A DNA stretch of 64,000 nucleotides from Viridothelium virens (lineage: Eukaryota > Ascomycota > Dothideomycetes > Trypetheliales > Trypetheliaceae). A program made the translations under genes and the position numbers. The notes beneath the pieces were generated by a model that was not told where the DNA came from, did no database searches, and worked only from the letters and a program-made list of their open reading frames with translations. Below, one piece after another: positions 24,121-61,933 of this stretch (positions are counted from its first letter, which is position 1; every line of letters begins with the position of its first letter). Where the stretch lies: positions 124,001 to 188,000 of the forward strand of contig ML991825.1 in NCBI GenBank assembly GCA_010094025.1, in the 5' to 3' direction.

Positions 24121-24590
24121 GCAGCAATTTGATGAGCTCTCTTCCTTCCGCGTTTCCGACCATTTTGTTCGATGTGGCGGCGATCTCTCTGCCTGCATCT
24201 TTCTGTTCGTGTCCGCAGGCTATTTTCCATAGCGAAGTTGTTGACTAGGTGGGGGTTCGAGAGGGCATGATTTCGCAGTTAATGGCGATTCAGCAGTGGC
24301 ATCGGCGTGTAGGCTAGGCAGTGAAGCAAATCGATTTGAGGTAGGCCGTGAATTAAGTCTCCCTGCACCAATCCTTACGCAAGTTCGCCTTGGTGTACTA
24401 TGATTTTGCAATCGGATTTGTTGGACGAGAAATGGATTAACTCTTGGCGCTCGGAAGCGATTGACTTTTCCCTAATTACCGAACTGATTTGCCCCAATCC
24501 ATCGATTTCACCAAATATTTTCCAATAAGTGGGCCCGGCCTGCGCCACGTATCCAGAAGATTTATCGACTGATCAATGCGGAATACTAAA
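24121..24590. other. intergenic / promoter of GARS-like gene
   Basis: 470 bp upstream of the GARS-like ATG. No gene or repeat seen. Confidence 0.5.
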
Positions 24591-26147: not shown

Positions 26148-26443
26148 CGAATTCTTCAGAGCATGACATCAGCCACATTAAATTGGAGAATTGAAGGAGA
26201 TGCCAACTACAAAGTCGATCCTGTATATCCGCATAGCGACCAGCAATCATTGCGCCGGAGTTTCTGTTGTAGGGTTTGGAGGCAAATCGATCTTGTGGAT
26301 AGAAGGATATACTTGGTAACCTTTTGTGTGCGACACTAATACTACCGGTACGTATTCGGAGTCTTGTCATCACGCACCCGTTGTATGAAAGCTCGCGCGG
26401 ATTCTGTACGCTGTCAGTGATAATGATAGAGAAGTGATTTGGA

Positions 26444-36228: not shown

Positions 36229-36780
36229 CTTCGGCCTTCGCAATCCTGAGTGAGGGAGTCTTAATTCGGGATTCTTTATTTTATTATCTTTTTTTTCCTT
36301 CTCTATTTCTCTATATTCCAAAAAGAGAGAATGAAGATTACGGTGCGCTTTGAGATTAGTGAATATGAAATTTCTTTGATCCTTCGCAACGAGATTTGGC
36401 AGTACAGTAGAGTACCAACCTTCGCGTTTGGAAAATGGCTACGGTTTATCAACTACCAACAAGCCAAAATCCCTTTACAAAGGAATAGCACGGTACCAAA
36501 AAAGCGGACCCCGTGCATACGTACTAAAGTTTGTCGGCAGTTTCTACCTCACGGAACTGCCTTGTTACCCCGCATGGATGGATAAGTTGTGCTGCGACTT
36601 GAAGTCAAAAGGGCTCAAGTCCGGAAGCTACTGCTAGCTTCGGCAATCGAGAGGCATTAAGTAGCCGATCCAGTTGCACCTATGGATGTATATCTACACG
36701 AAAGGTGGCATCTCAGAAAGTGTATCAGACTCTGCGCTTGAAGAATCAAATGCGTGTTGATACAGACACGGGTAATCTAA
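36229..36780. promoter_or_regulatory. divergent promoter region SDR / FAD monooxygenase
   Basis: 552 bp separate the two ATGs. Next to the SDR start the sequence is rich in T/A (tttattttattatctttttt on the plus strand). The rest shows short frames without motifs. The two genes probably share regulation. Confidence 0.5.
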
Positions 36781-41429: not shown

Positions 41430-41724
41430 TGGGGTCTTTTAACCGGCGAGACTAAAGCTTCCGGGGAGAAGATACCGAAGTTCTGCCGGCCGCCAGATGC
41501 ATGTTTACCCCGCCCGCGCTCATCTGGCGACGCGAACCACTGGGGTCAGGTACCTGCACGCGACGTTGGTGAGCCTGTGGAACGGCAGATACTCTTCCGG
41601 AATTCTGACGGAACTGGTGACCCTCTGATCCATGTTGAAATGGGTGTTATTTCGAGAGCGAACGTGAGCAGTTCAAAGCAGACGAGGTATTGTTTGTTCT
41701 CCCGCTCATTCTGCACTCGATACC

Positions 41725-43950: not shown

Positions 43951-45116
43951 TCAAGCATATCTTCCCTGAATCCTCATGTGCTGAAACTCGCCTGCAGTTA
44001 CAAACTCCGAGGACACCTTTGCTCCGAGACCCGAGCCGTCCAGCAGAGGGCGCAGAACGGCTGTCCGATCAGGCTTTGCAAAATAAGCTATTGAAAAGCG
44101 CTCTTCAACGACATCCCCCTTTCTTGCTTGTTCGTTACCTTGTGGTAATTCAGGTAGATGAACACGATGTCGTGCGCTACAGAGACCAGTCCATTTCTGC
44201 AGGCAATCTCCCGCATTCAGGATGCACTCGTACGGGCCTCCGCTCGCGATGCCGACGAAGCTCCCACTCCCGGGCGGTGATTCGACCTCAAGACCTCCTA
44301 CGCGGTCTTGGAACAGGAGCGTGATGCTCCCAAAGTCGGTGTGCGCTGCAATCCGCGTCGAGGTAGAGAATGCCTCTTGCGGTACGGCTGGGTAGTGGGT
44401 TAAGCGTAGCTCATTGTGCTGAGCTGCGTGGAGCTGGCTTAGTGTCTGTGTTGGAAGGCCCAGCCCTATGGAAATAGCCTCGAGAATGAGCAGTTGTGTG
44501 CGGTAACATACTTCGAAGAATTCGACGAAGGTGGGCTCAAAAGTGTCACAGACCCCAGTAGGTGGCCAGATGTTGCTGTAGAGCTCGTCTCGTTCAGACC
44601 CAATGTCATATGACTCCTATCCGAAGAGTTTGGTAGCTGTGTCAGAGACCAGAAGTGGGGTTTGTAGCAGACCTTCATGTCTTTCAGAAGAGGAAGTTGG
44701 GATGACTTGTCCTCACGCCCATAGTTCGAGATGGTGGAGACATTCTCTAAACCTACCGCGCTGAAGCCTCGGTGTGGGTTTGCTGTAGGAGGATGAGGAG
44801 ACTTTAATTTCTGGTTTAATGGTAGTTGGAAGAAATGCCGACTCTGGTCGATTCATTAGCGAATAGCACCTTTCGTCGGTTCACTTCGACTTACCGTTGC
44901 AAATGCCTTGTCAATTGTCGAAGGCTCGATGCCGTGATTTACGAGTCTCACGAAGCCGCGTTGTCTGAGGCCTGACACGAGTTTGCGGCAAAATTGATCA
45001 CGCTTTGCTACATTGCCGCTTTGATAATTCGCAAAGTCAAGTCGCTCAAACATCCCTTGAAAAATCGTCAAAATGCCGCGAAGCGCTCCCAAAGTCCAGG
45101 AAGTCAGACTCTCCAC
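43951..45116 (-). CDS. 2-oxoglutarate/Fe(II)-dependent dioxygenase
   Basis: Three exons: 45116-44895, 44843-44673 and 44616-43951, 353 codons (352 aa). The frame stays open across each junction (FAT-SRHFFQLPLNQKLKSP, LLKDMK-ESYDIGSERDEL). N-terminal DIOX_N domain (DFANY...LVSGLRQRGFVRLVNHGI, SPHPPTANPHRGFSAVG). C-terminal Fe(II) domain with HTDFGSITLLFQD (HxD), the distal His in SARHRVHLPE and the 2OG-binding Arg in ERFSIAYFAKP. This is the isopenicillin N synthase-like superfamily, used widely in fungal pathways for hydroxylation, desaturation or ring closure. It starts 554 bp downstream of the NRPS stop, same strand, which supports a joint role. A TATA-like sequence (TTATTATATC on the minus strand near 45361) precedes it. 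Confidence 0.9.
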
Positions 45117-45670
45117 ACCGAGATGCCATCATAAGTTCGGCGTGACTGCTCGTCTTATAGTCTCCTTCCTTCGTATCGGGATCCTCACCAATCTTGTCTC
45201 ACTAAGGCAGGGGCCGTCTCGGTGATCCTTCAAAAAATTTTGGACTCTATCGCACGGTGCACTTTGCCAAGGGTCTTCGTTCCGTGGCTCTAAGTCCTAC
45301 TCAGCGAGGCGGTGAAGCTCGGATGTCAGCCGGTGAGGCCAGTGCCTAAGCGTTCTCTTTGATATAATAAAAGTAGTTCTTGCGAGTCGGAGGCACGATC
45401 GGAATAGTAATCCATATCGTACTTGACCAGACTCGCGGTGGAATGACTGCCACTCAATGGCCCTCCAAGCGACTCACATTTTATTCTGAATACAAATCAT
45501 CTCGCGAGCTCGCCATGAGCTTTGCGATGCTCGGCTCACGAAATTACGTTACAAAAGTGCCAGGCTGGGTACAAAGAAATTTGTCCTCAGAATTTCTCTT
45601 TTTAGTGCGGACAAGTGCCAGGTCAGATCATGGCAGCACTAGACTACCCCCAGCAAGCTTCTACGTATTA
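45117..45670. other. intergenic between NRPS 3' end and 2OG oxygenase
   Basis: 554 bp holding the NRPS terminator and the 2OG oxygenase promoter. A TATA-like element (plus strand gatataataaaag, 45360-45372) fits the oxygenase. A plus-strand frame at 45380-45706 overlaps the NRPS end antisense and has no motif. Confidence 0.6.
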
Positions 45671-48600
45671 CTAGTGCTCACACAAAATTGTTCGCAGTCG
45701 AAGTAAAAACTCTCGCACTGTCCCCTCGTCAATAAGTTTCCTGTTGCCTTCAAATTCTAGCTCCAGCTTCCCACTTCGCGGTGTAGCGTAAATCTCTGGG
45801 CGATTGCGCGGAAGTAGGTCTCTTTCATAGACGGATACATTGCTCTGCCATCCCGCAAACGTGAACTCTGTATCCTCTTCTTGCTGATAAGCAGTACGCC
45901 ACCCAAAGTCTTGCACTTCCTTCGGCCACTCAGTGCAACTTTTGATGATTTCAACCATTCCCATGGCTTCATGAACCGAGTCTTGTATAAACTGGGGCTG
46001 TAACTGCATTGCGATGTCACTCATCGAATCACCCGCTTCTATGCGCAGTCTGACAGGGACTTCCGTTAGACAAGGGCCGACGACTTTTTGAAGCCGGGTT
46101 GGAAGCATTGAACGGCCCGTAACCAAGCGACCAAATACTACCTCATCTCGTTGAAATTGTTGCGACAGGGCCAGAGCACAAGCAGCATGGAAAACTGTCG
46201 CAGGAGAGACTCCATCGAACCATCGTACACTGGGCATTTCAATGGTTTCCTTCATTGTCAAGCGATCTCCTGTGTTATAAGCTTGACCTGTCGGGTCGCC
46301 GGTACTCGACTCCGGAAATGGGCAGCCGTTCAGCCTTGAAGCCCAATACTGCATGCTGTCATTTTTCTTGGTCTCATTGAAAGCGATCACCTCACCAAAA
46401 GCAGGTGGTATTGGTAGACTCTCTTCACTGTAAATAGACGACAAACTTTTTAGGACGAGTCCAAAGCTGAACCCATCAAATTGAGCGTGAGATAGCCTGA
46501 AAATGAGCCTGTGCTTTCCGGAGTGATGCTTGATAGCCATGAAACGAATGAATGAATGGCCCAATTTTCGATCCCTTTTGAGATCTTCCTCGCAGATAGT
46601 ATTCGTGAAGGAGGACGCGGTTCCGTCATCGACTTCGAAAAGGTCAAAGGTCGGCTTAAAATCCGCTATCAGTACTTGCAAAAAGCCGTAATCTGCTGGT
46701 ATGAAGACTGTATGAAGGATGTCGAAGTATTTCACTAGTTCTTCACATGCCCGCTTAAGCCTCGCGAAGTCTATATCGCTAGACAGGTCAAGGATCCAGT
46801 GCGGAAATCTGTTAGGCGGATCTTGTAGCGCATCTAGGATCGCGCGTTCCTGGAAATCCGTCGTCGGAAAAACATTCTTGATACTTCCCACGTCTTGATC
46901 AAGAAAAGGTTGCACAGATTCCTGCAGAAATATTTCTACATCACTCACTTTGAGTAACGAGAAAGGCGGCAATGCCTGTGAAGACTCCTTCTCTCCAGTG
47001 ACTTCCGTCACTAGCTGTGCCAACTGAGAGAGACGAGGCGCTTTGAAGATATCAGCGACGGTTAGCAATAGCTGTTGGTCCCGTGCGGCTGCCACCAAAC
47101 GCATAGCTGCAATAGACTCTCCTCCAATCCTCAGAAAGCTACTATCAGCACTAATGCTCGAAGCCTCGATCCCGAGGACCGCGGACCACAAGATTTGTAA
47201 CCGCTTCTCCATCATCGTGGATGGTGCGCGGCGCTCTTTACCTCGTGGTTGCAGTTCAGCAAGACGCTCCAGTGTCTTTGAACCTCCCAACTCTCGCAAG
47301 GCTCGTCTGTCTGTTTTGTTGGTCGTCGTCATAGGAATTTTATCAATAGGAATGTATGCGCCTGGGACCATATACTGCGGTAAATGCTCCGAGAGGCTCT
47401 CCTCAAGGTCCTCCACAAGTCGCCCAAGCCTGGACCGGATATCTGAATTTGACCGATTTCCATTTCTCGCGAGACTTAAGAACACGGCAAGGATAGGGTG
47501 CTCGCTATTTTGTGGCATGATAATCTCTGCAGCCACGCCATCGCAATAGCTGGACTCCCTCAGACTTGCTCGGACATGGTGTTCAACTTCTTCCAATTCT
47601 ATTCGCTGCCCTCGTAGCTTGATCAATGTGTCTTTGCGGCCGATGAATTGCAAGGACCCGTCTGTGTTGTATTTCAGGAGATCCCCTGTCTTGTAAAGCC
47701 TGCCATGCCGGCCTGGATGTCCTTCCAAGCCACGGGTGAGCCATGGCGGGTCATGCATGAATGCTGCTGCTGTTTTGGCCTCGTCGTCAAAATAACCCTG
47801 ACTAACAGTTGGTCCTTCAATTAAGAGCTCTCCAATGGCGCCAATGGCAGCCAGATGATTTGGACGATCAGGCTGGACAAGCCATGTCAGAGCACCAAAT
47901 GAATGGCCAACATGGTTGTTGGGTGTCCTGGGGCCAAGAGGGACTATTGAAAGAGCTTGCGCGCATTCTGCTGGGCCATAGATCCCAATGATTGTCTCTG
48001 CTTGTGCCCAGCGTGCGACCTCGGCACTTTGGATCGGCTCGCCTCCCATCGCCAATGTTCTAATACCCGGCATGGCAGATGGGTCCAATGACCGAGCAAC
48101 TGAGGGTGTGAAGTACACGTAATCGGCGTTCATACGGTTGAGGGAACTAGGAATGTCATTTTTGCGCTCCCATTCCGATGGTATGCAAAGGCATCCGCCG
48201 CATATCAAAGTATTTAAGGTGTTGGACCAGGAAACGTCAAAATTGTATGAGACGAAGTCGAAAACGCGAGTTCCCCGTTTGACATGTAGGGCTTTTGCCT
48301 GATGCATTGCTGCGGATGAGAAGTTTTCATGCGTCGTTACAACACCCTTAGGAGTGCCCGTCGATCCAGAGGTGAAGACGATATACAAGATATCTAATGG
48401 CGAAACTTTGGGTAACTGAATCTTGATCGGGCTTTGGCAAGGTTGCAACGGGAGAGTTGTCTTATCGGCCACGACGACATAGGAATTGGATATCCGTGTT
48501 GCTAGTGTTTCGTTGGCGACAGAAGAGATAATTAGCCTTGGATTGACTTGTTTGACTATAGAACGTAGGCGTGCTTCTGGCTGGGTTGAGTCCATTGCTA

Positions 48601-51600
48601 GACAAGCCGCACCCGATTTCATTGTTGCTAATGCAGCTACTGGCATCCACAGTGACTTTTCGAAGCACAAGGGGATAACAGTCCCGGGGCCGGCACCAAG
48701 AGTAGCCAGTTGAGAAGCTAAGCGGTCAGAAAGATCATCCAGTTCTGCATATGATAGATTTCCGTCCCACGAGCATATGGCTGGCGCCTGAGGTTGTTGC
48801 AATACGGTGTCCCTGATCGAATCGTGCACGCATGCTTGGTTAGGTCTCGGAACAGAAGAATTCCAGCCCCAAAGTTCTGTAATGTCCTGCGTGCTAACCG
48901 TCTCAATGTCTTCAACCAAGTGAGTCGAAGACGTACATACTTGACGGAGAACTTGTTCAAACTGGGAGGCAATGCGTTCCATTTGCACTACATCAACAAC
49001 CTTCGAATCAAAGCTTATCTCTATTGATAGATCACTTGTATGTCTGAGCTGGCACATTATCATTACAGCGTGGGGATTGAAGGTATCGAGTCCATCGGTG
49101 GAAACTTTTAGTTCGGAATGGGTCCGGAATGGTCCACCGCTGTGATTCACGTGCGCACCATCTCCGGCTGGCTGAACGACAAGAAGAGTATTGAAATGAC
49201 CGCTTGTTTTGGTATTCGTATCGGTGCGGCAAGCATCAAGCAATACCGTGTGCTCATAAGGGATCATGTCAATGGACTGTTTCTGTAAGTTCTCCAGAAG
49301 GTCGTTGACGGTCATTTTTGGGTTGAACTTTACTCGCACGGGAAGTGCACTTATGAGAGGCGCGATCATGCGCTCAATGCCCGCTATTGGCGCCTGCCGT
49401 CCCGTTACCAGCGCCCCGAAGACTAAATCTTTGGAATCGGTATAGCATGCGGACAAGATCGACCAAGCTGTTCTTATTACGGTTGACGCTGTGACGTCTC
49501 GATCGGGCCATCGCATATCATTTATATTGCGCTTCACCGTACTGTCGGCCTTTGGTTGATAATCCTGATAAGGTAGCATCGGAAAAGGAACAGCCTCAGA
49601 GTCTGAGAATTGATGGCGCCAGAACTCTCTGGCATTTTCCTTATCAGTTCTTACGGTGTGCTTCAAAAAGGCCTGGAAAGGTGCCACGGGGTATTTATTG
49701 ATCTCGCCCATGTAGGAATTCGAGACTTCTTCAAGAAGCAAATCTAAAGAATGCCCATCATATATTGCGTGATGTTGAGTAAGAACACAGTAGCGTCGTC
49801 CAGTTTCTGATTGTTCAACAATCGCTAGTCGAGTAAGACGGGAGGAGAGACCCATTGGTCTTCTTTGATCGTATTCGAGATACGCCTGCAGGCTTGGGCT
49901 GGTTTGCCATTCTAATTGTTCGCCCAGCTGTACCTGTATCAACCCTTCGATGGGAATATCAACTATCCTAGAGCGAAGAATCGGCGCAGTCGATCGGCTG
50001 ACGTCTTCCCATGCTTGCTTCAGGCGATCAATGTCGAGATCGTCTCGTAGCTCCAAGAGAAGTCTTGCAATATAATCCCCAGGCCGTTTCGCTGTCACTG
50101 AAAGAAGTGATTTTTGGACATCAGTACAAGGGAATGCGTCTTCAATGTCTGATGCCTGTGTACCGCATAGCCTAGATATATGTGCAATACTCTTGTCCTT
50201 CATATTTGCCATCCGTAATAACGAGAACGGCTCCACCGTTTCTTCCTCCACCAAAGTGTCGGAGGGTCGAGATCGGGATGTGATTGCTTTTGCCATTTCG
50301 GAAAGTCGCGGCGAACGCAGAATATGTTGAACTGTTAGGTCAATACTTTGACTACGAGCTAGAGCAGCTAACCGCATGGCAGCGATGGAATCACCACCCA
50401 AGCGTAGAAAACCGCTGTTGGCGCCGATGGTTTCGATAGGAAGACCTAGCACTACTGCCCATAACTGTCGCAGGCAGTGTTCTGCATCTGTGGACACTGG
50501 CACCTCTGCCGCAGCTTCAGTTGCACCAGCCAGTTGTTCAATTGTCAGATCTGCGCCTATTTGCCGTAGGTGTCTTCTGTCGATTTTTCCACTCGCGGTT
50601 AATGGGACAGCTTCAATCGGTATATAAGCACTCGGCACCATGGATAAAGGAAGTCTTTCTGGCAAGGCAATTTGAAGATGGTTCACAAGCTCGTCCAACT
50701 GAGTAGTCGACTGTGACTCATGCTGTATAAAGACAACAAGGGTATCCTTCTCCGTCGCTTTTGGGACAACAATGTCGGCGATCATAGTTGGCACTGAGTG
50801 CGTACGTCCTAGGCATTGTTGAACATGGTGCTCTACTTCGGAAAGTTCGACCCTCTGCCCTCGAAGCTTGGTCTGTCTGTCTTTTCTTCCGAGGAAGAGC
50901 AATGTGCCATCGGCCGGATTGTATTTTACGAGGTCGCCCGTCCTGTACACACGGCCGCCCCTTCCAGGAAGTGCACCATCAGGAGAACCTTCCATCAGCC
51001 AGGTTGGGTTCTCTAGGAAAGCTGACTCTGTCTTTTCTTCGTCATGTAGATACCCTGCACCCACAAGCGGTCCCTCTAAACAAAGCTCTCCGATGGTACC
51101 TATAGGGCATAATCGCGTATTTGACAGTGGGTCTATTACCCAAGTTAAGACTCCTACTCCAGTGCCTATGGACAGCTGACGGGGTAATGTGCTTGGAACG
51201 CTCCAATACGTCGCCATTGCGGAGCACTCCGTTGGCCCGTATACTACAGCGACATTGGCAGATGAGACCCAGGGAGCAAGGTCATCTGTTTTCACTTCTT
51301 CACCACCAAGGTAGACACTCTGAAGCGTTGGTATTCTGGTAGGGTCAATGAGTCGCGCAGTAGCGGGCGTCAGAAAAATGCTGGTGGTCCGAAATCTTCG
51401 AATGCTGTCAGTTAAGTTATTTTTCCGCTCTTCTTCACTGGGAATGCACAAGGTCCCGCCGGCACAAAGAACATGTAAAGCACTCCAGTGGGCTGCATCA
51501 AACGCGTAAGATGAGAAGTCGTACATGCGCGAACTTCTATCCAATTGGAGAACGTCGCGCTGATGTGATACGGCACTGCTGAAGTTCCGATGTTGTAACA

Positions 51601-54600
51601 AGCAGCCCTTAGGGGATCCTGTGCTTCCAGAAGTGAAAATAGCGAACAAGAGATCGGCAGATCCGACATTGGGTAGGGGGTCTTCACGCTTGTCAGTAAC
51701 TGCAGCGTTGCAACTACGCAAGAGGTCCGTCTCTGCACCTAACAGCAAGACATTTGCGACCAGTCTTGAGGACAATCGTTTATTGGAGGGAGAAGATAGG
51801 ATAATTCGGGGCTCGACTTGGTCCAATGTGGCCTCAAGACGGGATATCGGAAGAGTCGGATCCAGAAAGAGCCCGGCGCCACCAGCTTTCATTACGCTCA
51901 GAAAAGCGACAGGCATCCAGAGTGATTTTTCGAAACATAACGGAACGATCATGTTCCGATCAACACCATATCCGATCAACCGATGAGCAATGGCACTTGA
52001 AAGTTCATCTAGTTGGCTGTAAGTGAGTTCACCATCCCAGGCAGAGATCGCCACTGCATCGGGATGAGCTTGAGCAATATTGGTGATCATGTCATGCGCA
52101 CAAACTTCAATACTTTTAGGCAATCTGGCATTCCACTTCCACACTTGATCGAGGTCCTGGTGTGTCATCATGCTGACGTCGCGAAGGCATACTGTGTCAA
52201 GGTCCCGAGAACAGAGGTTCCTCAACAGCTGCTCGAAATGCTGCACCAATTTCTGTATGGTAGCTTGGCCGATCACCTTAGAGTCGAAGCTAAGCTCTAA
52301 CTTCAATTGCCCCGCTTGAACTGTGCACACAGCCAGCAGCGCATATGTGTTAAAGGCATGAAAGCGGTGTTCTTCCTTGTGGCGCTTACTTGGGCCAACC
52401 TCAGAAACAAATAATCCACTGTCCATCATGTCTGGTTGCTCCGGCTGCACGACCAACATTGTCTGGAACTGGCACGCAGTTTTCGCTTCCTCACTGCATC
52501 GACTTATCTTCGACAGCCCTGTTTGCTCGTATGATATCATCTTGGTCGCCTGGTCCTGTAGAGCTTGTAGAAACTGGACGATGTTTCTTCCATTGTCAAT
52601 ATTGACTCGGATTGGCAGAGCAGATATAGTCGGACCAGCAATTCGTTCGATCCCTACAGTGGGAGCCTTACGGCCCGAGACAATTGTTCCAAATACTGTA
52701 TCCGAGAGATTTGTGTACCGTGAACATAGTATGGCCCAGGCCCCCCGAACTACTGTTGAGGGTGTAGAGTCGTCCGTTCGCCACGTTATCCCGTCTACCA
52801 TATGAGTATAGGACGAGTCTGCTTTCGGTTTGAACGAGCTAGAGGGCAAAGCTGGGAATTGAGTTGTTTCCAAGCCATCGAACTGAGCTTTCCAAAATTC
52901 GCCTTCTGCATCCCAATGTTGACTGCTGACATATTCAATGAATGATCGGAAAGGGAAGAGGCGGAGAGGTGTTTCACCATTGTAATAACGTTCCAGCACC
53001 TCAAATATAATGGGTGTAGTAAGTCCATCGTATATCGAATGATGCAGCGTCAATGCAAAAACATGGGAGCGTTCGCCTCCAGGTCCACTTTCGGGGTCTA
53101 GGAAAAGGCCGCACCTCATGAGAGGAGACCCAAGTACCATCGGAAGCTCCTCTTGTTTGCTCAGATAATCTTCAATACTTTCAGCTTCCATCCAACATGA
53201 GATGTGTCGAATGACTGCTTGGACTAGGCCTTGAGCAGGTAGGTCAATGATGCGGGTTCGCAGGATTGGGATGACCGAAACAACTTTTTCCCAAGCCTCT
53301 TTCAGTCGTCTAACGTCCACGGTGGAAGCCAGTTTTAGCATGTTGTGACCGACATAATCGTCCTTCCGCATCCCAGTCAAGGCCAATAGGCCCTCTTGTA
53401 GCGGTGTACAAGGATATAGGTCTTCGATAGTATCCTTCTCGACGTTGCAAAGGGATGCTGCATGCTGACGTGCTTGATCGACGTTGACTTTCGGATTGAG
53501 GAGTAAGAAAGATTTAGACGACTCCTCATCTACCTCATCTTGATTCCTTAGTAATTTCGCCATATTCTTGAGTTTTGGGAATTGAAAAATATCGGCCACC
53601 TTCAGCGACAGGCCTTGCTGCCGAGCTGCGCCCACCAAACGCATGGCCTGAATTGAGTCACCCAGTCGAAGAAAGCTATCACTCGTTGAGATTTTCTCGG
53701 CGTCCACTCGAAGGATACAAGACCACAGTTCCCGTAATGTTCTCTCAGCCGTAGTCGCAGGCTCTCGTTTCCCGTCGGTCCCCTGTTGCTGCGGTTGAAA
53801 TGAAGCTCCAATCTCTCGGAGGCGGATTCGGTCCTTCTTGCCTGTCGAGGTCATCGGAATGCTGGCAACTGGTATGTAGTAGGAAGGAATAGCAAATGCA
53901 GGTAAAGACGCCTTGAGTCCCTCATTCATCCCAGCTGTCAGACTTTCGAACTCATCTTGTGACGCCGTTTCCGCCTCGGCAAAACTAATGAAAGCCACGA
54001 GACATGCGTTGTTGCCATCCTTGGGGACTATGAGTTCAGCCACCACATCAATGTTCGCTCTTCTCGAGAGGCGCCGTACATGAAACTCCACTTCCTCAGG
54101 CGCAACAAGCTGGCCTCGAACCTTGAATAATGCGTCTTTCCTCCCCAAGAAGATGAGTCTGCCACTTGAATCGTATCTGGCTAGGTCGCCGGTGCGATAA
54201 ATCTGGCCGTGCCTGCCGGGAGATCCTTCGCGTCGTCCGCACAAGAGAAAATCCGGATCTTTGCAGAAAGAGCGATTGCTTAATTCTGGATTGCCTTGAT
54301 ATTTTTCAGCGCATGCCGGCCCTTCGAGTGCGATTTCGCCTATCGCACCAAATGGAACAAGTTTGTTATGGTTTTTAGGATTGACAAGCCAGCAAAAAGT
54401 TGACGGACTGGAGTTAGATCGTCCAATCATACCGTTGTGCCACCCTTCTTCGTCAGCAGCGCAGAATGCCGCTGCAGAACATTCACACGGACCATACCAG
54501 TTGAGGATGCGACTTCTGCCTCTCCACCGGTCGACTTCCTCTTGCACGAGGTTCTCTCCACCCAAAAAAAGCGTGGACAGGCTAGGAACTTCCTGAGGGC

Positions 54601-57600
54601 TGAGAAGTTTTGCAGTTGACGGGGTAAGACATGCAAGATTGCAGTCAAAACGGTTGATGGCAGCCGTCACTCCGTCGAACCTCTCAGACTCGGACGGAAT
54701 ACACAGACAAGCGCTGTTTGCAAGTGTAGACATCGTCTCAATAGTACAGGCATCGAAGTCATGTGATGTAAACTGGAAGGTCCTTGATGATGTACTCAGC
54801 GCAGCAACTTCTTTGTGCGCGTTCATATTAGCTGCAAGAGTTCTATGAGTCCATAAAATCCTTTTCGGTTCGCCTGTGCTACCAGATGAGACCAATATCG
54901 CGGCTGGGTCATTTATAGACATTTCTGGTAGGCTCGTGCGAATGCTATCCTCAATCGGCCTTTCCATGAGCCGACTTATCGTGAAGCAACGAATGTATTT
55001 GGTCACAATCTTCGAACGCATCTCTGAGGCTACTGCGAGGTGAGGACCAACGCTGCTGAAGATGCTACTCATTCGGCGCTCTGGCATATGCACTGACTGT
55101 AATAAGCATACGCCTCCTGCTTTGAGCACCGCCAGCTGTGCAATGGGGGTCCATTTTGACTTTTCCAGGCACAAAGCGATGATCGAACCTCGCGTCACAC
55201 CCAGGCTAATCAGATTCTGACAGAAGATATCAGAAAGCTCGTCAACCTCTCGATACGAGAATTTCCCGTCCCATGCATCCACTGCTATCGATTCCGGAGT
55301 TTTCCTGGCTGCAGAGGCAACTTGGTCATGCGCACACATCTGAGGAGCCCGATAAGGCTCTGCATTCTCGCTCCAGAAAAAGCTGAGGTCAATGTCGCTG
55401 GCAGTGCAAATATCGCCAAGCTTCCTGCTCTCAGCATCTGCTATGCACATCTGATGAAGAACAGTCTCGAATTGGTGCGCTATTCGTTGAATCTGCCCAC
55501 TTTGGACAAGCCTGTTGTCAAAACTGATGTGCAGCTGCAGGCCTGAAGTCTTTAGCTCACATATCAGCATCAAAGCATACGTGTTGAAAGGATCAGTGCC
55601 TCGCGTATCAATATTCGAGGAGAAACTTCGGGCCTTGAATAGTAAGCTATCCTCTTGTAAGCTTTTGCCTTGAGCCACTGGTTGTACGACGAGTAACGTC
55701 TGGAAAAGGCCACTTCCCGGGTCTCCGATAGCACGTTGAATATTCGACAAACCGTAGTGTTCATATGACATCATGCTCACCGATTGATGCTGAATACGTT
55801 TCTGAAAATTTCTAATTGTCTCGTCCCAATCGATTGAGACGGCCACGGGCACCGTAGATATGGTAGGACCGACGCAGTCCTCGATACCTTTCATGTCTGC
55901 TTGACGCCCGCTGACAGTGGCACCGAATATAACATCGCCGGAATCTGTGTATTGAGCAGAAAGAACGGCCCAAGTGGAGCGTATGATTGTCGACGGTGTC
56001 ATCCCCGAAGACGGCCAATCTAATGATATACCGTGCGACAGATCTTCATTCGCTTGTGGATCATAAGTTGGAGAGGGAACGACTGGAAACTGCCTAAATT
56101 CCAAGTTTGGAATTTGTTGCTTCCAGAACTTTGATGCCGCTTCCGGGTCAACATTCGTTGAATACTGAATAAAATTCTGGAAAGGCGTGACATTCATGCC
56201 TCCTTGTTCGAGGTACTTCGACTCCAACTCATCCAACATCATCCTCAACAAGCTTCCGTCGTAAATGCAGTGATGAATTGTCAGGATGAACCTATTGTCG
56301 ATAATAGCAGCACGGCAAAGATCCGTACCTAGTCCCATCTCCTCGCGCTCATCCTCTTTCAAATACGCGTCTACGTTGTCGCCAGTCCGCCATGAAACAT
56401 TGACGAGAATGACCTGGAACAATCCCCGACCAGGGTAGTCAATGATTCGAGTTCTCAGGATGGTCAGTTTCTCGGTCGTAGCTCGCCATGCCTTTTCTAG
56501 CCGTTCAGGATCCACACCAGTCTGAAGCTCGAGGACACTTCGTGATACATATTGGCCCGGCCTCCTCACAGTCATTGCGAGGAGACCTTCTTGAAGAGCC
56601 GTGCAAGGATACATGTCGATAACGTGAGAATGTGGAACCTGGCAAACTTCGGCTGCATACAATCGAGCTTCAGTATGAGCAATGTTCAGGTCGAGAAGTG
56701 TGAAAGGAGGCACTCCTTGCTGGGGAGAGTTGACGTCTTGCTTAACTACTTCAGCCAATTTATCTAGTTGTGGGGTCTGGAATACTTGCGCCACGGTCAG
56801 CGAAAGCCCTTGGGCATAGGCTGACGCAACAAGACGCATCGCGCTGATTGAGTCGCCTCCTAGGCGCAGGAAGTTGTCGCCAGCATGTATAGTATCTCTC
56901 TCGATCCCGATTATTTCTGCCCAAAGGTTTTGTAATACTTTCTCCATGTAAGTGGAGGGTTTTCTCAGCTCACGACGAGATGGTTGTATCTTTGCCAGCT
57001 GGTCAAGCGTCAGCGAGCTTCCAATCTGCCGTAGGCGCTGCCTGTCAATTTTTCCGGTGTAACCTGTTGGGATTTTTAGAATCGGAATATAGAGCTTGGG
57101 AATCATGTACGGTGGTAAGACATCGGAAAGGCTTCTTTCAAGATCGTCCACCGGGAATATTCGTTTCATAAAGTGATCAAGTTCCTTTGCAGAGCCAGCT
57201 AAAACAGCAGGGGGGCTGACGAAGAGAGTTAAAACTTCATTTTCGCTTTTCTGCGGCCGGAAGATCTCTGCTACTATTGTTGTATCGGTTGTCTTCGATA
57301 AGAAGCATTGAACTTGGTGCTCAATTTCGCTCAGTTCGACTCTCTGCCCACGTAATTTTCTTTGGAAGTCATCACTACGTCCAATGAAAATTATGCTACC
57401 TTTAGAATCGTACTTCACAAGATCCCCAGTTTTATATATTGGCCTATTTCGTCCTGATATCACATCGCGACCGTGATGAAGCCAGCGTGGGAAGATGAAA
57501 GGGTTTTCCGGTGATGTCTGGCTGTCGCCACCAATATAACCATTTGCAAGAATTGGACCCTCAATGCAGAGTTCTGCAATCGTACCAATAGGGGCCAGAA

Positions 57601-60600
57601 AGTTGTGATCTTTCGGATCAACGAGCCAACTCGAGCCGTATATGCTGCGACCAATCATCCCTGGCTTCCAAGTCTCGTCTTCGACTGTGCACACGGTCGC
57701 ACAAGATGCTTCTGCTGGTCCGTACCAATTGTACAAATGGTGGAGAGTGCTTGTCCATCTGGTTGCAGGATCTTGTAGTAGCTTTTCGCCTGTGAATACC
57801 AGAGTTTTCAATGAGGGGACATCTTTGGGAAGGATCGTGTTGGCAACTGACGGTGTAAGACAAATCCAATTGGCCTGCATCTCATGAATGGCTTCAGCTA
57901 GGTGGTCAGACCTGTGATCCTCTGATGGAACGCACAAGCAGCCACCAGCGACTAGCGTCGCAAGGGCCTCCAAGCTGCTCACATCAAAATCATATGCTGA
58001 GAACTGGAACACTCTACTACCAGTAGTGATCTTGAAAGCCGATACAGCTGCATGGACATTGCTTGATAAACTTGCGTGACTCCAGGAAATGCTTTTCGGA
58101 GTACCAGTCGACCCAGAAGTGAAAATAATTATAGCAGGGTCGGCCGAAACTGGCTGGGCTAACCGGGTCTTCTCGGTGCCATCTACTCTATCTGGTTCGA
58201 CAAGTTCAGAGATGTGGAAGACTGGTACGAACCCATAAAATGCGGACGACTCGGGTATGCTTGATGTTATGACTAGCTTAGGTCCTAGGGCATGGAGAAC
58301 CTTATGAGCACGATGAATAGAAGCGGATACAGACATCGGCAGTGCTGTGGCCCCGGCTTTGAGGATCGCTAGTATTGAGACTGTCATCCAGGCTGACTTT
58401 TCAAAGACCAATGGAATGATGCTCCCAGTGCCAACACCTTTGTCTCGCATCTTAGCCGCGAGAGATGTTGATAAGCGTCCCAATTGGTAATAGGTAATTT
58501 TCATATCCCAAGCCGAGACGGCAAGAACGTCTGGTTGAGCGAGCGATTTGGTGTCGATCCAGTCGATGACAGGATTCAAGGTCGGTCGAGGAATATGTCT
58601 ATTCCACTCCGAAATCTCTACAAGGTCTTGCTCACTGAGAGCTGAAACATGACACAATTTCATATTTCTGCCTTCTTCAGTACAAAACTGCCTCAGTAAA
58701 AGCTCCAGCTGGTGAGCAATACGTCGAACCTGTATGTCTTGAATTGCTCCGGAATCGAAATTTATTCTAAGCTTGAGACCTGATTCTTCCAATTCGCAGA
58801 TAATCATCATTGCATAGGAGTTGAACATGCCCATACTTTTTGTCTGCTCGAGTATAAGGTCATCTCCCGAATCTGTACAACGCCGAGAGAAAAGGCCTCC
58901 TTGCTGTTGGCTGGATCCCTGTACAGCAGGCTGAACAACGAGTAAGAGCTGAAACTGACTGGCTTCCTGGGTATCTTGAGTGATGTGCTGGATTCTTTGT
59001 AGGCCAAATTGCTCGAAGTCTGTCATTTCTAATGCTTGGCTTTGTATTTGTTCGTGTAAATCTTCTACGGTCTGGTCCCATCCGAATTTAATTCGTACTG
59101 GTACTGTCGCGATGGTGGGCCCCGCCATTCGCTCTATACCAGTGACAGACGCTTGTCTACCGCTTATAGTTGTCCCAAATTTGACATCGTCCGAATTGGT
59201 GTACAATGCTAATAGCATTGCAGTTGCTGATCTTATAATTGATGAGGCAGTAATGTTCGTGGATGGCCATTGTAGTCCGGAAATTGGGTGATAGAAATCC
59301 ATGTTAATTCCACCATTGGAACTTGGAGATGGGAAGACTGTTGCCCGTAACCCTGACAATTGCCTTTCCCAGAATTCTGTAGCTTTGGGCACATCTATGG
59401 CCATTGAATATCTAATGAACGATTGGAAGGATACAAGAGGCCAAAACGTTGTCTGTTCAGCACGATAAGCTTGCGCAATAGTATCCAGGATGAGCATCGT
59501 ACACCAGCCGTCATGGATAGCATGATGCATTTCCAAATAGAATAGACGTCGATCACCATTGAGAAGACCTGCTCGACATAGCGGTGTTCCGAGGCCCATT
59601 CCTCCTCTTTGACTCAGTGAAGCGCCATCAGGAAAGTGTGCATGTAATGTTACTGGAGAGCTCAGAACCACGTTCACAAGACCATTTCGCGAGAGTTCAA
59701 TGATGCGAGTACGAAGGATGGATATCTGCTTGACCGTGGCTTCCCAAGCCTTTTGGAACTTTCCAACATCAAGTTCATGAGGCAACCGGAAGACTACCTT
59801 TGATATGTAGTCTCCTGCCCTTCTGGAAGTCATTGCAAGCATTCCTTGCTGAAGCGGAGTGCAGGGATATACGTCCTCGATCTCAGTGATTTCAACGCCG
59901 CAAAGCCTTGCAGCTTCTTGGCATACTGCGAGCTTCTCTTTCTTTCCATTCAACAGGGAAAATGGCGCAGGAGCTTCGTCATGCTGTGATTTAGCCTGAG
60001 CTCTAGTGATATTGGCCAGGTCGCTCAGCTGTGGTGTTCTGAAGATATCTGCCGCCGTAAGCATTAGGCTCTTCTCGCGCGCTGCTGCAACCAAACATAC
60101 AGCAGCTACTGAGTCGCCTCCTAACCGGAAGAAACTATCTGTTGTGCTGATACGAGCGGGACTCAAATCCAATACTCGTGCCCAGAGCTGCCGAAGATGA
60201 TGTTCGATCTCGTTGGAGGGTTTGCGATACTCGGCACTGGTCATGATCGACGACTGTAAGCTGTTCAGATCTTCCCGAGAAAGACCATTCCCAATCTCTC
60301 GAAGTCGCCGTCGATCTACCTTACCAGTGGCAGCAAGCGGGATCTCTTCGACAGGAAGGTAAAAACTAGGGACCATGAAGCTCGGTAACACTTTAGAAAG
60401 CTTCTGCGAAAGACCGTCTATTAGCGGCTTGGCTCGTTCCCTCTCGTGTTCTTTTACGTTTACGAACAGCACGAGCGAGGGGCTTCCATTGCCGGCAGGA
60501 TGGACGACATCTGCGATAATCGGGAGCTCATCATCCAAGCAGGCGCGCGCATGATATTCGACATCACCGATCTCGACTCGTTGACCCCTGATCTTGAGTT

Positions 60601-61933
60601 GCGACGCATCTTTCCGGCCAATGAAAAGGAGCTTCCCATCTGTTTTATACTTTACAAGGTCCCTAGTCTTGTAAAGTCTGCCTCGCCTACCAGCGAACTT
60701 ACTGCTGCCGGTCAATAGCCAAGGAGGATCGTGGATAAATGCTGTGGATGTCTGTTCTGGATTGGATAAGTAACCTTGGCCAACAAGTGGCCCTTCTAGA
60801 TACAGCTCCCCTACAGCTCCCCTCGAAACGAGTTTGTCGGTATCGTGTGGATGAACGATCCAGGTACCAAAGCCAACTCCTACACCGATATCCGGGCGCT
60901 CGTCTTTTGTAGAAGGAAGTAGTGAGAAAGCACATTTAAAAGTGCATTCAGTCGGTCCATAAGTATTCAGAAGCCTCACATGCCTAGCCCAGATCAAGTT
61001 TTCGCGGTAAGGCATTTCACCGCTCAGGAGCACTGTGCGAAGAGTGGACGGGATCGGACTGATAGTCCGTAGAACTGTTGGGGTGACGTTGATCAAGGAC
61101 GCGTTGAATACCTGTATTGTTGAAGAAAGATCGTTCATCATGTCTTGTTCTGATGCGATACAGATACAGCCACCGGCGCATATGGTGTGCAAGAAGTTAC
61201 TCCACGCTACGTCAAAGGAGTATGGTGCAAAGTCCAAGACGCGCGACTCGCAGCAAAAGCCGAGCTTCTTTCCTTGGTATTCAACAGCGCTCCTTACATT
61301 GGCATGGCTGATGCAGGCTCCTTTGGGCAGGCCCGTGGTGCCAGATGTGAAGGAAATATAAGCCGTGTCTAAAGGCGAGACCACAGGGAGTCGGGATGAG
61401 TGCTCTGGGAGATGAAGCAATGTTTCGTCAAGTTTGAATACTGGCACGTCCGCCAGAAGCGAAGCCCTCTCGTAATTAGCGGTGGATGAGATGATTACTC
61501 CCGGCTGCGCCTGCTGAACAACGGATCGTAGCCTAGCATCTGGTTGAGCAGGATCGAGGGCAATGGCAGCACATCCTGACTTTATGACGCCTAGCATTGC
61601 AACAGGAGTCCATCTCGTCTTCTCAAAACAGATGGGGACGTTCGACTTCGGAGTAATGCCCAGATCAATAAGTTGCTGAGCGACCCGATTCGCTAGAGCA
61701 TCTAGCTCAAGATAGGTCAATTGGCCATCCCAGGCATCTACTGCCAGCGCTGAAGGCTGAATTCCAGCTATCTCTGCGATCAAGCTGTGGACACAACCAT
61801 GGACTGGGTCCGGTACAGAAGAATTCCAGTTCCATATTAGGTCGAGATCCTCCTGACTAGCATTGACAGAGACGGTGGGCTCCTCTGAAGAGAATTCGGC
61901 TGTATTAGCTAGGAGGTCATTGAGTAGGTGCAT
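45671..61933 (-). CDS. five-module non-ribosomal peptide synthetase (A-T-C)x5
   Basis: One uninterrupted 16,263-nt frame, 5420 aa. The start is fixed by an in-frame stop 21 nt upstream (61955-61957). Domain order with approximate residues: A1 46-560, T1 Ser608, C1 687-1105 (HHAIHDG 803); A2 1118-1640, T2 Ser1695, C2 1773-2185 (HHCIYDG 1887); A3 2198-2710, T3 Ser2760, C3 2838-3258 (HHSIYDG 2964); A4 3275-3795, T4 Ser3849, C4 3932-4350 (HHAIYDG 4054); A5 4367-4885, T5 Ser4940, terminal C 5020-5415 (SHAQFDG 5148). No E, MT, KR or TE domain. All A domains keep the A5 GPxE core and the A10 Lys. Departures: YKTRDL in A1, PKS/PKR after the A3 loop of A2/A3, LGDS instead of LGGDS in T3, LGGES in T5, TNKTD instead of TGKxD in A5. 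Expected product: a pentapeptide, probably released by cyclisation. Confidence 0.95.
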   Translation of the reverse strand: MHLLNDLLANTAEFSSEEPTVSVNASQEDLDLIWNWNSSVPDPVHGCVHSLIAEIAGIQPSALAVDAWDGQLTYLELDALANRVAQQLIDLGITPKSNVPICFEKTRWTPVAMLGVIKSGCAAIALDPAQPDARLRSVVQQAQPGVIISSTANYERASLLADVPVFKLDETLLHLPEHSSRLPVVSPLDTAYISFTSGTTGLPKGACISHANVRSAVEYQGKKLGFCCESRVLDFAPYSFDVAWSNFLHTICAGGCICIASEQDMMNDLSSTIQVFNASLINVTPTVLRTISPIPSTLRTVLLSGEMPYRENLIWARHVRLLNTYGPTECTFKCAFSLLPSTKDERPDIGVGVGFGTWIVHPHDTDKLVSRGAVGELYLEGPLVGQGYLSNPEQTSTAFIHDPPWLLTGSSKFAGRRGRLYKTRDLVKYKTDGKLLFIGRKDASQLKIRGQRVEIGDVEYHARACLDDELPIIADVVHPAGNGSPSLVLFVNVKEHERERAKPLIDGLSQKLSKVLPSFMVPSFYLPVEEIPLAATGKVDRRRLREIGNGLSREDLNSLQSSIMTSAEYRKPSNEIEHHLRQLWARVLDLSPARISTTDSFFRLGGDSVAAVCLVAAAREKSLMLTAADIFRTPQLSDLANITRAQAKSQHDEAPAPFSLLNGKKEKLAVCQEAARLCGVEITEIEDVYPCTPLQQGMLAMTSRRAGDYISKVVFRLPHELDVGKFQKAWEATVKQISILRTRIIELSRNGLVNVVLSSPVTLHAHFPDGASLSQRGGMGLGTPLCRAGLLNGDRRLFYLEMHHAIHDGWCTMLILDTIAQAYRAEQTTFWPLVSFQSFIRYSMAIDVPKATEFWERQLSGLRATVFPSPSSNGGINMDFYHPISGLQWPSTNITASSIIRSATAMLLALYTNSDDVKFGTTISGRQASVTGIERMAGPTIATVPVRIKFGWDQTVEDLHEQIQSQALEMTDFEQFGLQRIQHITQDTQEASQFQLLLVVQPAVQGSSQQQGGLFSRRCTDSGDDLILEQTKSMGMFNSYAMMIICELEESGLKLRINFDSGAIQDIQVRRIAHQLELLLRQFCTEEGRNMKLCHVSALSEQDLVEISEWNRHIPRPTLNPVIDWIDTKSLAQPDVLAVSAWDMKITYYQLGRLSTSLAAKMRDKGVGTGSIIPLVFEKSAWMTVSILAILKAGATALPMSVSASIHRAHKVLHALGPKLVITSSIPESSAFYGFVPVFHISELVEPDRVDGTEKTRLAQPVSADPAIIIFTSGSTGTPKSISWSHASLSSNVHAAVSAFKITTGSRVFQFSAYDFDVSSLEALATLVAGGCLCVPSEDHRSDHLAEAIHEMQANWICLTPSVANTILPKDVPSLKTLVFTGEKLLQDPATRWTSTLHHLYNWYGPAEASCATVCTVEDETWKPGMIGRSIYGSSWLVDPKDHNFLAPIGTIAELCIEGPILANGYIGGDSQTSPENPFIFPRWLHHGRDVISGRNRPIYKTGDLVKYDSKGSIIFIGRSDDFQRKLRGQRVELSEIEHQVQCFLSKTTDTTIVAEIFRPQKSENEVLTLFVSPPAVLAGSAKELDHFMKRIFPVDDLERSLSDVLPPYMIPKLYIPILKIPTGYTGKIDRQRLRQIGSSLTLDQLAKIQPSRRELRKPSTYMEKVLQNLWAEIIGIERDTIHAGDNFLRLGGDSISAMRLVASAYAQGLSLTVAQVFQTPQLDKLAEVVKQDVNSPQQGVPPFTLLDLNIAHTEARLYAAEVCQVPHSHVIDMYPCTALQEGLLAMTVRRPGQYVSRSVLELQTGVDPERLEKAWRATTEKLTILRTRIIDYPGRGLFQVILVNVSWRTGDNVDAYLKEDEREEMGLGTDLCRAAIIDNRFILTIHHCIYDGSLLRMMLDELESKYLEQGGMNVTPFQNFIQYSTNVDPEAASKFWKQQIPNLEFRQFPVVPSPTYDPQANEDLSHGISLDWPSSGMTPSTIIRSTWAVLSAQYTDSGDVIFGATVSGRQADMKGIEDCVGPTISTVPVAVSIDWDETIRNFQKRIQHQSVSMMSYEHYGLSNIQRAIGDPGSGLFQTLLVVQPVAQGKSLQEDSLLFKARSFSSNIDTRGTDPFNTYALMLICELKTSGLQLHISFDNRLVQSGQIQRIAHQFETVLHQMCIADAESRKLGDICTASDIDLSFFWSENAEPYRAPQMCAHDQVASAARKTPESIAVDAWDGKFSYREVDELSDIFCQNLISLGVTRGSIIALCLEKSKWTPIAQLAVLKAGGVCLLQSVHMPERRMSSIFSSVGPHLAVASEMRSKIVTKYIRCFTISRLMERPIEDSIRTSLPEMSINDPAAILVSSGSTGEPKRILWTHRTLAANMNAHKEVAALSTSSRTFQFTSHDFDACTIETMSTLANSACLCIPSESERFDGVTAAINRFDCNLACLTPSTAKLLSPQEVPSLSTLFLGGENLVQEEVDRWRGRSRILNWYGPCECSAAAFCAADEEGWHNGMIGRSNSSPSTFCWLVNPKNHNKLVPFGAIGEIALEGPACAEKYQGNPELSNRSFCKDPDFLLCGRREGSPGRHGQIYRTGDLARYDSSGRLIFLGRKDALFKVRGQLVAPEEVEFHVRRLSRRANIDVVAELIVPKDGNNACLVAFISFAEAETASQDEFESLTAGMNEGLKASLPAFAIPSYYIPVASIPMTSTGKKDRIRLREIGASFQPQQQGTDGKREPATTAERTLRELWSCILRVDAEKISTSDSFLRLGDSIQAMRLVGAARQQGLSLKVADIFQFPKLKNMAKLLRNQDEVDEESSKSFLLLNPKVNVDQARQHAASLCNVEKDTIEDLYPCTPLQEGLLALTGMRKDDYVGHNMLKLASTVDVRRLKEAWEKVVSVIPILRTRIIDLPAQGLVQAVIRHISCWMEAESIEDYLSKQEELPMVLGSPLMRCGLFLDPESGPGGERSHVFALTLHHSIYDGLTTPIIFEVLERYYNGETPLRLFPFRSFIEYVSSQHWDAEGEFWKAQFDGLETTQFPALPSSSFKPKADSSYTHMVDGITWRTDDSTPSTVVRGAWAILCSRYTNLSDTVFGTIVSGRKAPTVGIERIAGPTISALPIRVNIDNGRNIVQFLQALQDQATKMISYEQTGLSKISRCSEEAKTACQFQTMLVVQPEQPDMMDSGLFVSEVGPSKRHKEEHRFHAFNTYALLAVCTVQAGQLKLELSFDSKVIGQATIQKLVQHFEQLLRNLCSRDLDTVCLRDVSMMTHQDLDQVWKWNARLPKSIEVCAHDMITNIAQAHPDAVAISAWDGELTYSQLDELSSAIAHRLIGYGVDRNMIVPLCFEKSLWMPVAFLSVMKAGGAGLFLDPTLPISRLEATLDQVEPRIILSSPSNKRLSSRLVANVLLLGAETDLLRSCNAAVTDKREDPLPNVGSADLLFAIFTSGSTGSPKGCLLQHRNFSSAVSHQRDVLQLDRSSRMYDFSSYAFDAAHWSALHVLCAGGTLCIPSEEERKNNLTDSIRRFRTTSIFLTPATARLIDPTRIPTLQSVYLGGEEVKTDDLAPWVSSANVAVVYGPTECSAMATYWSVPSTLPRQLSIGTGVGVLTWVIDPLSNTRLCPIGTIGELCLEGPLVGAGYLHDEEKTESAFLENPTWLMEGSPDGALPGRGGRVYRTGDLVKYNPADGTLLFLGRKDRQTKLRGQRVELSEVEHHVQQCLGRTHSVPTMIADIVVPKATEKDTLVVFIQHESQSTTQLDELVNHLQIALPERLPLSMVPSAYIPIEAVPLTASGKIDRRHLRQIGADLTIEQLAGATEAAAEVPVSTDAEHCLRQLWAVVLGLPIETIGANSGFLRLGGDSIAAMRLAALARSQSIDLTVQHILRSPRLSEMAKAITSRSRPSDTLVEEETVEPFSLLRMANMKDKSIAHISRLCGTQASDIEDAFPCTDVQKSLLSVTAKRPGDYIARLLLELRDDLDIDRLKQAWEDVSRSTAPILRSRIVDIPIEGLIQVQLGEQLEWQTSPSLQAYLEYDQRRPMGLSSRLTRLAIVEQSETGRRYCVLTQHHAIYDGHSLDLLLEEVSNSYMGEINKYPVAPFQAFLKHTVRTDKENAREFWRHQFSDSEAVPFPMLPYQDYQPKADSTVKRNINDMRWPDRDVTASTVIRTAWSILSACYTDSKDLVFGALVTGRQAPIAGIERMIAPLISALPVRVKFNPKMTVNDLLENLQKQSIDMIPYEHTVLLDACRTDTNTKTSGHFNTLLVVQPAGDGAHVNHSGGPFRTHSELKVSTDGLDTFNPHAVMIMCQLRHTSDLSIEISFDSKVVDVVQMERIASQFEQVLRQVCTSSTHLVEDIETVSTQDITELWGWNSSVPRPNQACVHDSIRDTVLQQPQAPAICSWDGNLSYAELDDLSDRLASQLATLGAGPGTVIPLCFEKSLWMPVAALATMKSGAACLAMDSTQPEARLRSIVKQVNPRLIISSVANETLATRISNSYVVVADKTTLPLQPCQSPIKIQLPKVSPLDILYIVFTSGSTGTPKGVVTTHENFSSAAMHQAKALHVKRGTRVFDFVSYNFDVSWSNTLNTLICGGCLCIPSEWERKNDIPSSLNRMNADYVYFTPSVARSLDPSAMPGIRTLAMGGEPIQSAEVARWAQAETIIGIYGPAECAQALSIVPLGPRTPNNHVGHSFGALTWLVQPDRPNHLAAIGAIGELLIEGPTVSQGYFDDEAKTAAAFMHDPPWLTRGLEGHPGRHGRLYKTGDLLKYNTDGSLQFIGRKDTLIKLRGQRIELEEVEHHVRASLRESSYCDGVAAEIIMPQNSEHPILAVFLSLARNGNRSNSDIRSRLGRLVEDLEESLSEHLPQYMVPGAYIPIDKIPMTTTNKTDRRALRELGGSKTLERLAELQPRGKERRAPSTMMEKRLQILWSAVLGIEASSISADSSFLRIGGESIAAMRLVAAARDQQLLLTVADIFKAPRLSQLAQLVTEVTGEKESSQALPPFSLLKVSDVEIFLQESVQPFLDQDVGSIKNVFPTTDFQERAILDALQDPPNRFPHWILDLSSDIDFARLKRACEELVKYFDILHTVFIPADYGFLQVLIADFKPTFDLFEVDDGTASSFTNTICEEDLKRDRKLGHSFIRFMAIKHHSGKHRLIFRLSHAQFDGFSFGLVLKSLSSIYSEESLPIPPAFGEVIAFNETKKNDSMQYWASRLNGCPFPESSTGDPTGQAYNTGDRLTMKETIEMPSVRWFDGVSPATVFHAACALALSQQFQRDEVVFGRLVTGRSMLPTRLQKVVGPCLTEVPVRLRIEAGDSMSDIAMQLQPQFIQDSVHEAMGMVEIIKSCTEWPKEVQDFGWRTAYQQEEDTEFTFAGWQSNVSVYERDLLPRNRPEIYATPRSGKLELEFEGNRKLIDEGTVREFLLRLRTILCEH

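What the first reader, a model, noticed from the sequence alone, without database searches (positions are those of the whole stretch)
45671..61933. Uncharacterised five-module NRPS predicted to make a cyclic pentapeptide
The protein reads A-T-C five times, with no loading C, no E, no MT and no TE domain. With five A domains and five T domains, and the last C domain placed after T5, a pentapeptide closed head-to-tail or side-chain-to-tail is the simplest outcome. The gene has no intron in 16.3 kb. I do not recognise the product from known clusters.
Basis: partly seen in the sequence, partly recalled or inferred. Interest (0 to 1): 0.8.

Follow-up and report, generated by a model that had tools for sequence, protein, structure and literature searches.

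The report
Fungal five-module cyclic-peptide synthetase
A fungal gene encodes one giant enzyme that most likely strings five amino acids together and closes them into a ring; this is a known type of assembly line, and only its product, which is not identified, could be new.

Summary
Window 45671-61933 (-) is one uninterrupted 5420-aa frame with five adenylation, five thiolation and five condensation-type domains in the order A-T-C x5; Pfam shows no thioesterase or methyltransferase. The last C looks like a fungal terminal cyclising C domain (CT): motif SHAQFDG, 21-24% identity to C1-C4, and TqaA as its best single-stretch match among solved structures (74.9 bits), against 43.7 and 59.5 bits and rank 11 for C2 and C4. 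A cyclic pentapeptide is the best reading. The same minimal five-module, CT-ended plan is published for the cycloaspeptide synthetase (CT motif SHAQYDGVS; PMC5941284, passages), so the architecture is not new. The gene sits in what looks like an ordinary biosynthetic cluster: 2OG-Fe(II) oxygenase, P450, sugar-type transporter, FAD monooxygenase, SDR and a free-standing methyltransferase. No fungal sequence collection was available and a literature search by substrate code was uninformative, so the product and its novelty are untested. Departures worth a bench look: T3 reads LGDS, A1 has TRD in motif A7, and A2/A3 lack the last Gly of motif A3.

The parts
45671..61933 (-). NRPS gene, single frame, 5420 aa, A-T-C x5
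60281..61801 (-). A1 (code DVSNLSTFKK; motif A7 reads YKTRDL); slice limits approximate
59999..60238 (-). T1 (FFRLGGDS)
58550..59893 (-). C1 (HHAIHDG)
57011..58573 (-). A2 (code DVLCVTWCAK; motif A3 ends PKS)
56738..56977 (-). T2 (FLRLGGDS)
55292..56635 (-). C2 (HHCIYDG)
53798..55342 (-). A3 (code DAICFGWAAK; motif A3 ends PKR)
53540..53779 (-). T3 (FLRLGDS: one Gly fewer than T1, T2 and T4; carrier Ser kept)
52097..53440 (-). C3 (HHSIYDG)
50546..52087 (-). A4 (code DAWFYGVAMK)
50276..50515 (-). T4 (FLRLGGDS)
48815..50158 (-). C4 (HHAIYDG)
47276..48826 (-). A5 (code DVSYAGIQAK, read from the alignment)
47003..47242 (-). T5 (FLRIGGES)
45674..46894 (-). C5 = probable terminal cyclising CT domain (SHAQFDG)
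43951..45128 (-). 2OG-Fe(II) oxygenase in pieces (DIOX_N, 2OG-FeII_Oxy; probable introns); approximate limits
41668..43428 (+). cytochrome P450 (FGWGRRACSG read as haem motif); approximate limits
39153..40444 (-). sugar-type MFS transporter, three pieces; approximate limits
36839..38328 (+). FAD-dependent monooxygenase (weak FAD_binding_3 in one of three pieces scanned, NAD_binding_8 below cut-off in another); approximate limits
35431..36321 (-). short-chain dehydrogenase/reductase, N-terminal part
33500..34264 (+). free-standing SAM-dependent methyltransferase; cluster membership uncertain

Best explanation
A linear, non-iterative fungal NRPS. A1 loads T1 directly, so no loading C is needed; C1-C4 each join the growing chain to the next residue; the pentapeptide on T5 is released by the CT domain, which lets the N-terminal amine (or a side-chain nucleophile) attack the thioester and closes the ring. 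With no E domain, residues are L unless an A domain picks a D- or achiral residue. Neighbouring 2OG-Fe(II) oxygenase, P450, FAD monooxygenase and SDR probably oxidise precursors or the ring; the free methyltransferase may act in trans. Shown: frame, domain order, motifs, likeness of C5 to TqaA. Inferred: one pass per module, ring size, ring closure, membership of the neighbours. Unknown: the five residues, though A4 (DAWFYGVAMK) looks hydrophobic/branched-chain (recalled likeness to a cyclosporin Leu code).
For: Domain content and order. C5: SHAQFDG instead of HHxIxDG; 21.1-24.1% identity to C1-C4 against 35.7-41.3% among C1-C4; best single-stretch match TqaA (entry 5dlk), 74.9 bits, over 49.5 bits for the best stretch of bacitracin synthase 3, whose whole-sequence score is 75.7 bits from two stretches; that the TqaA entries are its CT domain is recalled. 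C2 and C4, the two controls run of four possible, put TqaA 11th at 43.7 and 59.5 bits. The cycloaspeptide synthetase, shown by deletion and by expression in A. oryzae to make a cyclic pentapeptide, is described as a minimal five-module NRPS without MT domains and with CT motif SHAQYDGVS, beside a trans-acting N-methyltransferase (PMC5941284, passages). Tailoring neighbours. A 2OG-Fe(II) oxygenase also adjoins the five-A-domain MbjA synthetase (PMC13036780, section 10).
Against: T3 has one Gly fewer (LGDS), A1 has TRD for TGD in motif A7, and A2/A3 lack the last Gly of motif A3; any of these could weaken a module. The SH motif alone does not prove a CT: a fungal chain-extending subtype (LCL-A) usually has SHxxxDxx(T/S) too (PMC10212144, passage). 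A terminal C domain can release a linear acid, as proposed for Fda1 of Fusarium poae (PMC12751119, passages), and some fungal NRPSs work non-linearly. No expression data, no relative and no product. C4 also matches TqaA fairly well (59.5 bits). The C5 structure model was of low confidence (mean pLDDT 57.9) and adds nothing.
Confidence: 0.75

Rival explanations
1. Non-linear use: one module (most likely module 3, with the LGDS carrier) is skipped or works poorly, or a module is reused, so the ring has four, six or more residues.
For: T3 lacks one Gly of the carrier motif while T1, T2, T4 keep LGGDS and T5 has IGGES. Non-linearity is stated for a fungal siderophore NRPS (PMC10192304, seen only in the search listing and the start of its abstract).
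Against: The carrier Ser and the rest of T3 are well kept (41.8-49.4% identity to the other T domains); A3 keeps the code Asp (alignment) and the A10 Lys.
Confidence: 0.12
2. The terminal C releases a linear pentapeptide acid, or one condensed with an outside amine, instead of a ring.
For: A terminal C domain proposed to hydrolyse is reported for Fda1 (PMC12751119, passages).
Against: In that paper Fda1's last C did not group with cyclising CT domains, whereas C5 here has the SHxxxDG motif and TqaA as its best single-stretch match. No C-domain tree with reference CT domains was built here.
Confidence: 0.08
3. The gene is decaying or silent and makes no product in this organism.
For: Motif departures in T3, A1, A2 and A3; expression cannot be seen here.
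Against: 16.3 kb open with the five carrier Ser, five C active-site motifs and five A10 Lys kept; the neighbouring 2OG oxygenase and P450 also show what I read by eye as their metal- and haem-binding motifs (motifs recalled).
Confidence: 0.05

Closest known systems
Cycloaspeptide synthetase PscyB/PjcyB (Penicillium; PMC5941284)
   Same: Minimal five-module NRPS, no embedded MT, CT-ended (SHAQYDGVS there, SHAQFDGFS here); a free methyltransferase gene lies in the region.
   Different: PscyB codes begin with an anthranilate domain (GVIFIAAGIK) followed by Ala, Phe, Leu, Tyr/Phe codes (Table 1); none of the five codes here equals any of them. Its methyltransferase gene adjoins the NRPS; here it is about 11 kb away with five recognised genes between.
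MbjA, cyclic pentadepsipeptide synthetase of Penicillium expansum (PMC13036780)
   Same: Five predicted A domains and an adjacent 2OG-Fe(II) oxygenase; homologues reported in Eurotiomycetes, Trichoderma and one Dothideomycete.
   Different: No sequence comparison was possible; the MbjA products hold Ile (or Val or hydroxy-Ile), Pip, Pro, Asp and hydroxy-Pip, and no such assignment can be made here.
Cyclochlorotine synthetase CctN (Talaromyces islandicus)
   Same: A cyclic-peptide NRPS located through the CT signature (PMC8949500, passage); that the product is a pentapeptide is recalled.
   Different: Cyclochlorotine is dichlorinated by CctP2 (PMC9144378, passage); no DUF3328/UstYa-type gene (class recalled) appeared among the neighbour pieces scanned here.

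Membership tests
Fungal modular NRPS | Ordered A, T and C domains on one chain with core motifs | tested here: met
Fungal modular NRPS | Core motifs canonical in every module (not strictly defining) | tested here: not met
   T3 LGDS, A1 TRD, A2 PKS, A3 PKR; canonical forms recalled
CT-terminated cyclic peptide synthetases | Terminal C with SHxxxD(G) motif, nearest to TqaA, distinct from chain-extending C domains | tested here: met
   tested by pairwise scores, not by a tree with reference CT domains
CT-terminated cyclic peptide synthetases | Ring closure activity | not testable with these tools
   needs enzyme or product
Cycloaspeptide-type synthetases | Five modules without MT, CT end | tested here: met
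   against PMC5941284
Cycloaspeptide-type synthetases | Anthranilate code with Gly at position 235 in A1 | tested here: not met
   A1 has Asp there, code DVSNLSTFKK
MbjA family | High identity over five modules and same A-domain specificities | not testable with these tools
   no fungal protein collection; PARAS not available
Cyclochlorotine/astin clusters | CctP2-like halogenase/oxidase gene in the cluster | tested here: inconclusive
   not among the 17 gene pieces between 33.5 and 45.1 kb scanned against Pfam (10, 2, 5); other pieces unscanned and cluster limits unknown

The most novel reading that the evidence does not exclude
The enzyme makes a cyclic pentapeptide scaffold not yet described, with unusual (non-proteinogenic) residues at positions 2 and 3, where A2 and A3 share Trp at code position 322 and a non-glycine end of motif A3, and with oxidative tailoring by the adjacent 2OG oxygenase and P450.
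Probability: 0.35. Interest if true: 0.4.

Novelty: new member of a known kind. Interest (0 to 1): 0.2.

Why it matters
Fungal cyclic pentapeptides include insecticidal compounds (cycloaspeptide E, PMC5941284, passages) and antitumour leads (N-methylsansalvamide, search listing), so an unassigned cluster is a reasonable discovery lead. It does not change what is known about how such enzymes work. The one mechanistic point of some use is whether a carrier domain with LGDS in place of LGGDS still works.

Tried and rejected
Relatives: no fungal collection is offered. A scan of genome contigs and one of viral contigs with the last 1360 residues found no relative (14 and 1 pattern matches, none confirmed); this says only that no close relative lies in those prokaryote and viral records. 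The window's own genome is not held, so paralogues, expression and species stay unknown. NSA2 in the window is nearest to entry 8i9t (311 bits) ahead of 8esq (295) and 3jct (287); that these are Chaetomium, fission yeast and budding yeast is recalled, and it only suggests a filamentous ascomycete.

Product: a literature search for the first eight letters of the five codes found 0 papers, but the sixth term, a recalled cyclosporin Leu code meant as a positive control, also found none, so the search was uninformative. Code positions come from recalled GrsA anchors applied to the alignment; the script writes the first D and last K itself (checked by eye) and misread A5 as DFYYAGIQAK because it caught an earlier FD; the alignment reading is used instead.

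Structure: AlphaFold on C5 with C1-C4 as alignment gave mean pLDDT 57.9, pTM 0.49; no fold search was run on it. Repeats: none of 30 bases or more, with 14-base seeds, between 33 and 64 kb. Rfam: no match at gathering score. tRNA: none. NCBIfam (the best 25 of 92-104 families shown per piece) gave the general AA-adenyl-dom model above its cut-off; the other listed families were below theirs, and the search added nothing.

Papers: PMC5941284, PMC8949500, PMC9144378, PMC12751119 and PMC10212144 were seen as passages; PMC13036780 as sections 8 and 10 and passages; Gao et al. 2012 (PMC3505271) is not held, so the CT mechanism is cited through the others. Literature searches.

Full report
What is there. 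The - strand frame at 45671..61933 is open for 5420 codons. By composition such a run has a chance of about 10^-116, and the other five frames of the stretch carry 171-267 stops. Pfam on three overlapping pieces shows AMP-binding, Condensation and PP-binding domains, with an AMP-binding_C match below its cut-off. The motif scan puts them in the order A1-T1-C1-A2-T2-C2-A3-T3-C3-A4-T4-C4-A5-T5-C5. No thioesterase, reductase or methyltransferase family, no extra epimerase-type C domain and no loading C is present, and no other NRPS piece lies in the window (0 hits with the gene masked, against 1 hit, the gene itself, unmasked).

The last domain. C5 has SHAQFDG where C1-C4 have HHxIxDG, and is 21.1-24.1% identical to C1-C4, which are 35.7-41.3% identical to one another. 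In the search of solved structures C5's best single stretch is TqaA (entry 5dlk, 74.9 bits; whole-sequence E 3.5e-20), although bacitracin synthase 3 has a marginally better whole-sequence score from two stretches (75.7 bits; best stretch 49.5). As controls C2 and C4, two of the four other C domains, rank TqaA 11th at 43.7 and 59.5 bits, below bacterial C domains. That the TqaA entries are its CT domain is recalled. This is the pattern expected of a fungal cyclising terminal domain, but the SH motif alone would not prove it, since a fungal chain-extending subtype usually carries it as well (PMC10212144, passage), and the margin over C4 is modest.

How it most likely works. A1 starts the chain without a preceding C, C1-C4 make four peptide bonds, and CT closes the ring: a cyclic pentapeptide, L-configured unless A domains choose otherwise. 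The published parallel is the cycloaspeptide synthetase: a minimal five-module enzyme without MT domains that ends in CT with SHAQYDGVS, with a trans-acting N-methyltransferase gene next door, shown by deletion and by expression in A. oryzae (PMC5941284, passages). A second parallel is MbjA of P. expansum, five A domains with an adjacent 2OG-Fe(II) oxygenase (PMC13036780, section 10). Closure of the ring, ring size and one pass per module are inference here.

Substrates. Codes read from the module alignment with recalled anchor positions are A1 DVSNLSTFKK, A2 DVLCVTWCAK, A3 DAICFGWAAK, A4 DAWFYGVAMK, A5 DVSYAGIQAK (the script's reading of A5 was wrong and is replaced by the alignment). All keep the Asp of position 235 and the A10 Lys. 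A1, A4 and A5 are the closest set (42.6-44.2% identity); A2 and A3 share 39.2%, no more than A2 and A5 (39.4%). I do not assign residues, beyond noting that A4 looks like a hydrophobic branched-chain code.

Departures from the norm. T3 reads FLRLGDS, one Gly short; A1 has YKTRDL for YKTGDL; A2 and A3 end motif A3 in PKS and PKR where A1, A4 and A5 have PKG. These are in-frame and single-residue. They may be tolerated or may weaken modules; nothing here decides it.

Surroundings. Working away from the NRPS on its 3' side: a 2OG-Fe(II) oxygenase with probable introns (43951-45128 -), a P450 (about 41668-43428 +), a sugar-type MFS transporter (39153-40444 -), a FAD monooxygenase (about 36839-38328 +, weak), an SDR (35431-36321 -) and a methyltransferase (33500-34264 +). 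This looks like an ordinary secondary-metabolite cluster. On the other side an ankyrin-repeat gene starts at about 62587. No transcription factor appeared among the 17 pieces between 33.5 and 45.1 kb that were scanned against Pfam (10, 2, 5); 5 of the 17 gave no family (1, 4) and 2 gave only matches below the cut-off. Many other short frames there were not scanned.

Novelty. The kind is known. Whether the product is known could not be tested: no fungal or MIBiG collection is available, the prokaryote and viral scans found nothing, and the literature search by code was uninformative because its control also failed. I therefore rate it a new member of a known kind, of low general interest.

Noticed in passing
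24529-26147 (+): A phosphoribosylamine-glycine ligase (GARS) gene in pieces separated by likely introns, with GARS_N, GARS_A and GARS_C. Four + strand pieces just after it (26148-26731) gave no Pfam family, so no AIRS half was found there. Fungal ADE5,7 is normally bifunctional (recalled), so this may be a second, single-function or cut-down copy; it lies about 7 kb from the methyltransferase.
   Followed up: partly
62587-64000 (+): Ankyrin-repeat protein running off the window, facing away from the NRPS.
   Followed up: no
31180-32591 (+): DUF7708 protein in its first part, no family in 31725-32588; perhaps a STAND/NLR-like protein (inference) at the other edge of the cluster.
   Followed up: no
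26505-29257 (-): AAA+ ATPase of the fungal type with DUF7025 and AAA_lid_13; the AAA match itself lies just below its cut-off.
   Followed up: no
53654-53656 (-), T3: Carrier Ser of T3 sits in LGDS, not LGGDS.
   Followed up: partly
12669-13403 (-): Ribosome biogenesis protein NSA2 (12672-13259 searched), a housekeeping gene that fits a fungal origin.
   Followed up: yes
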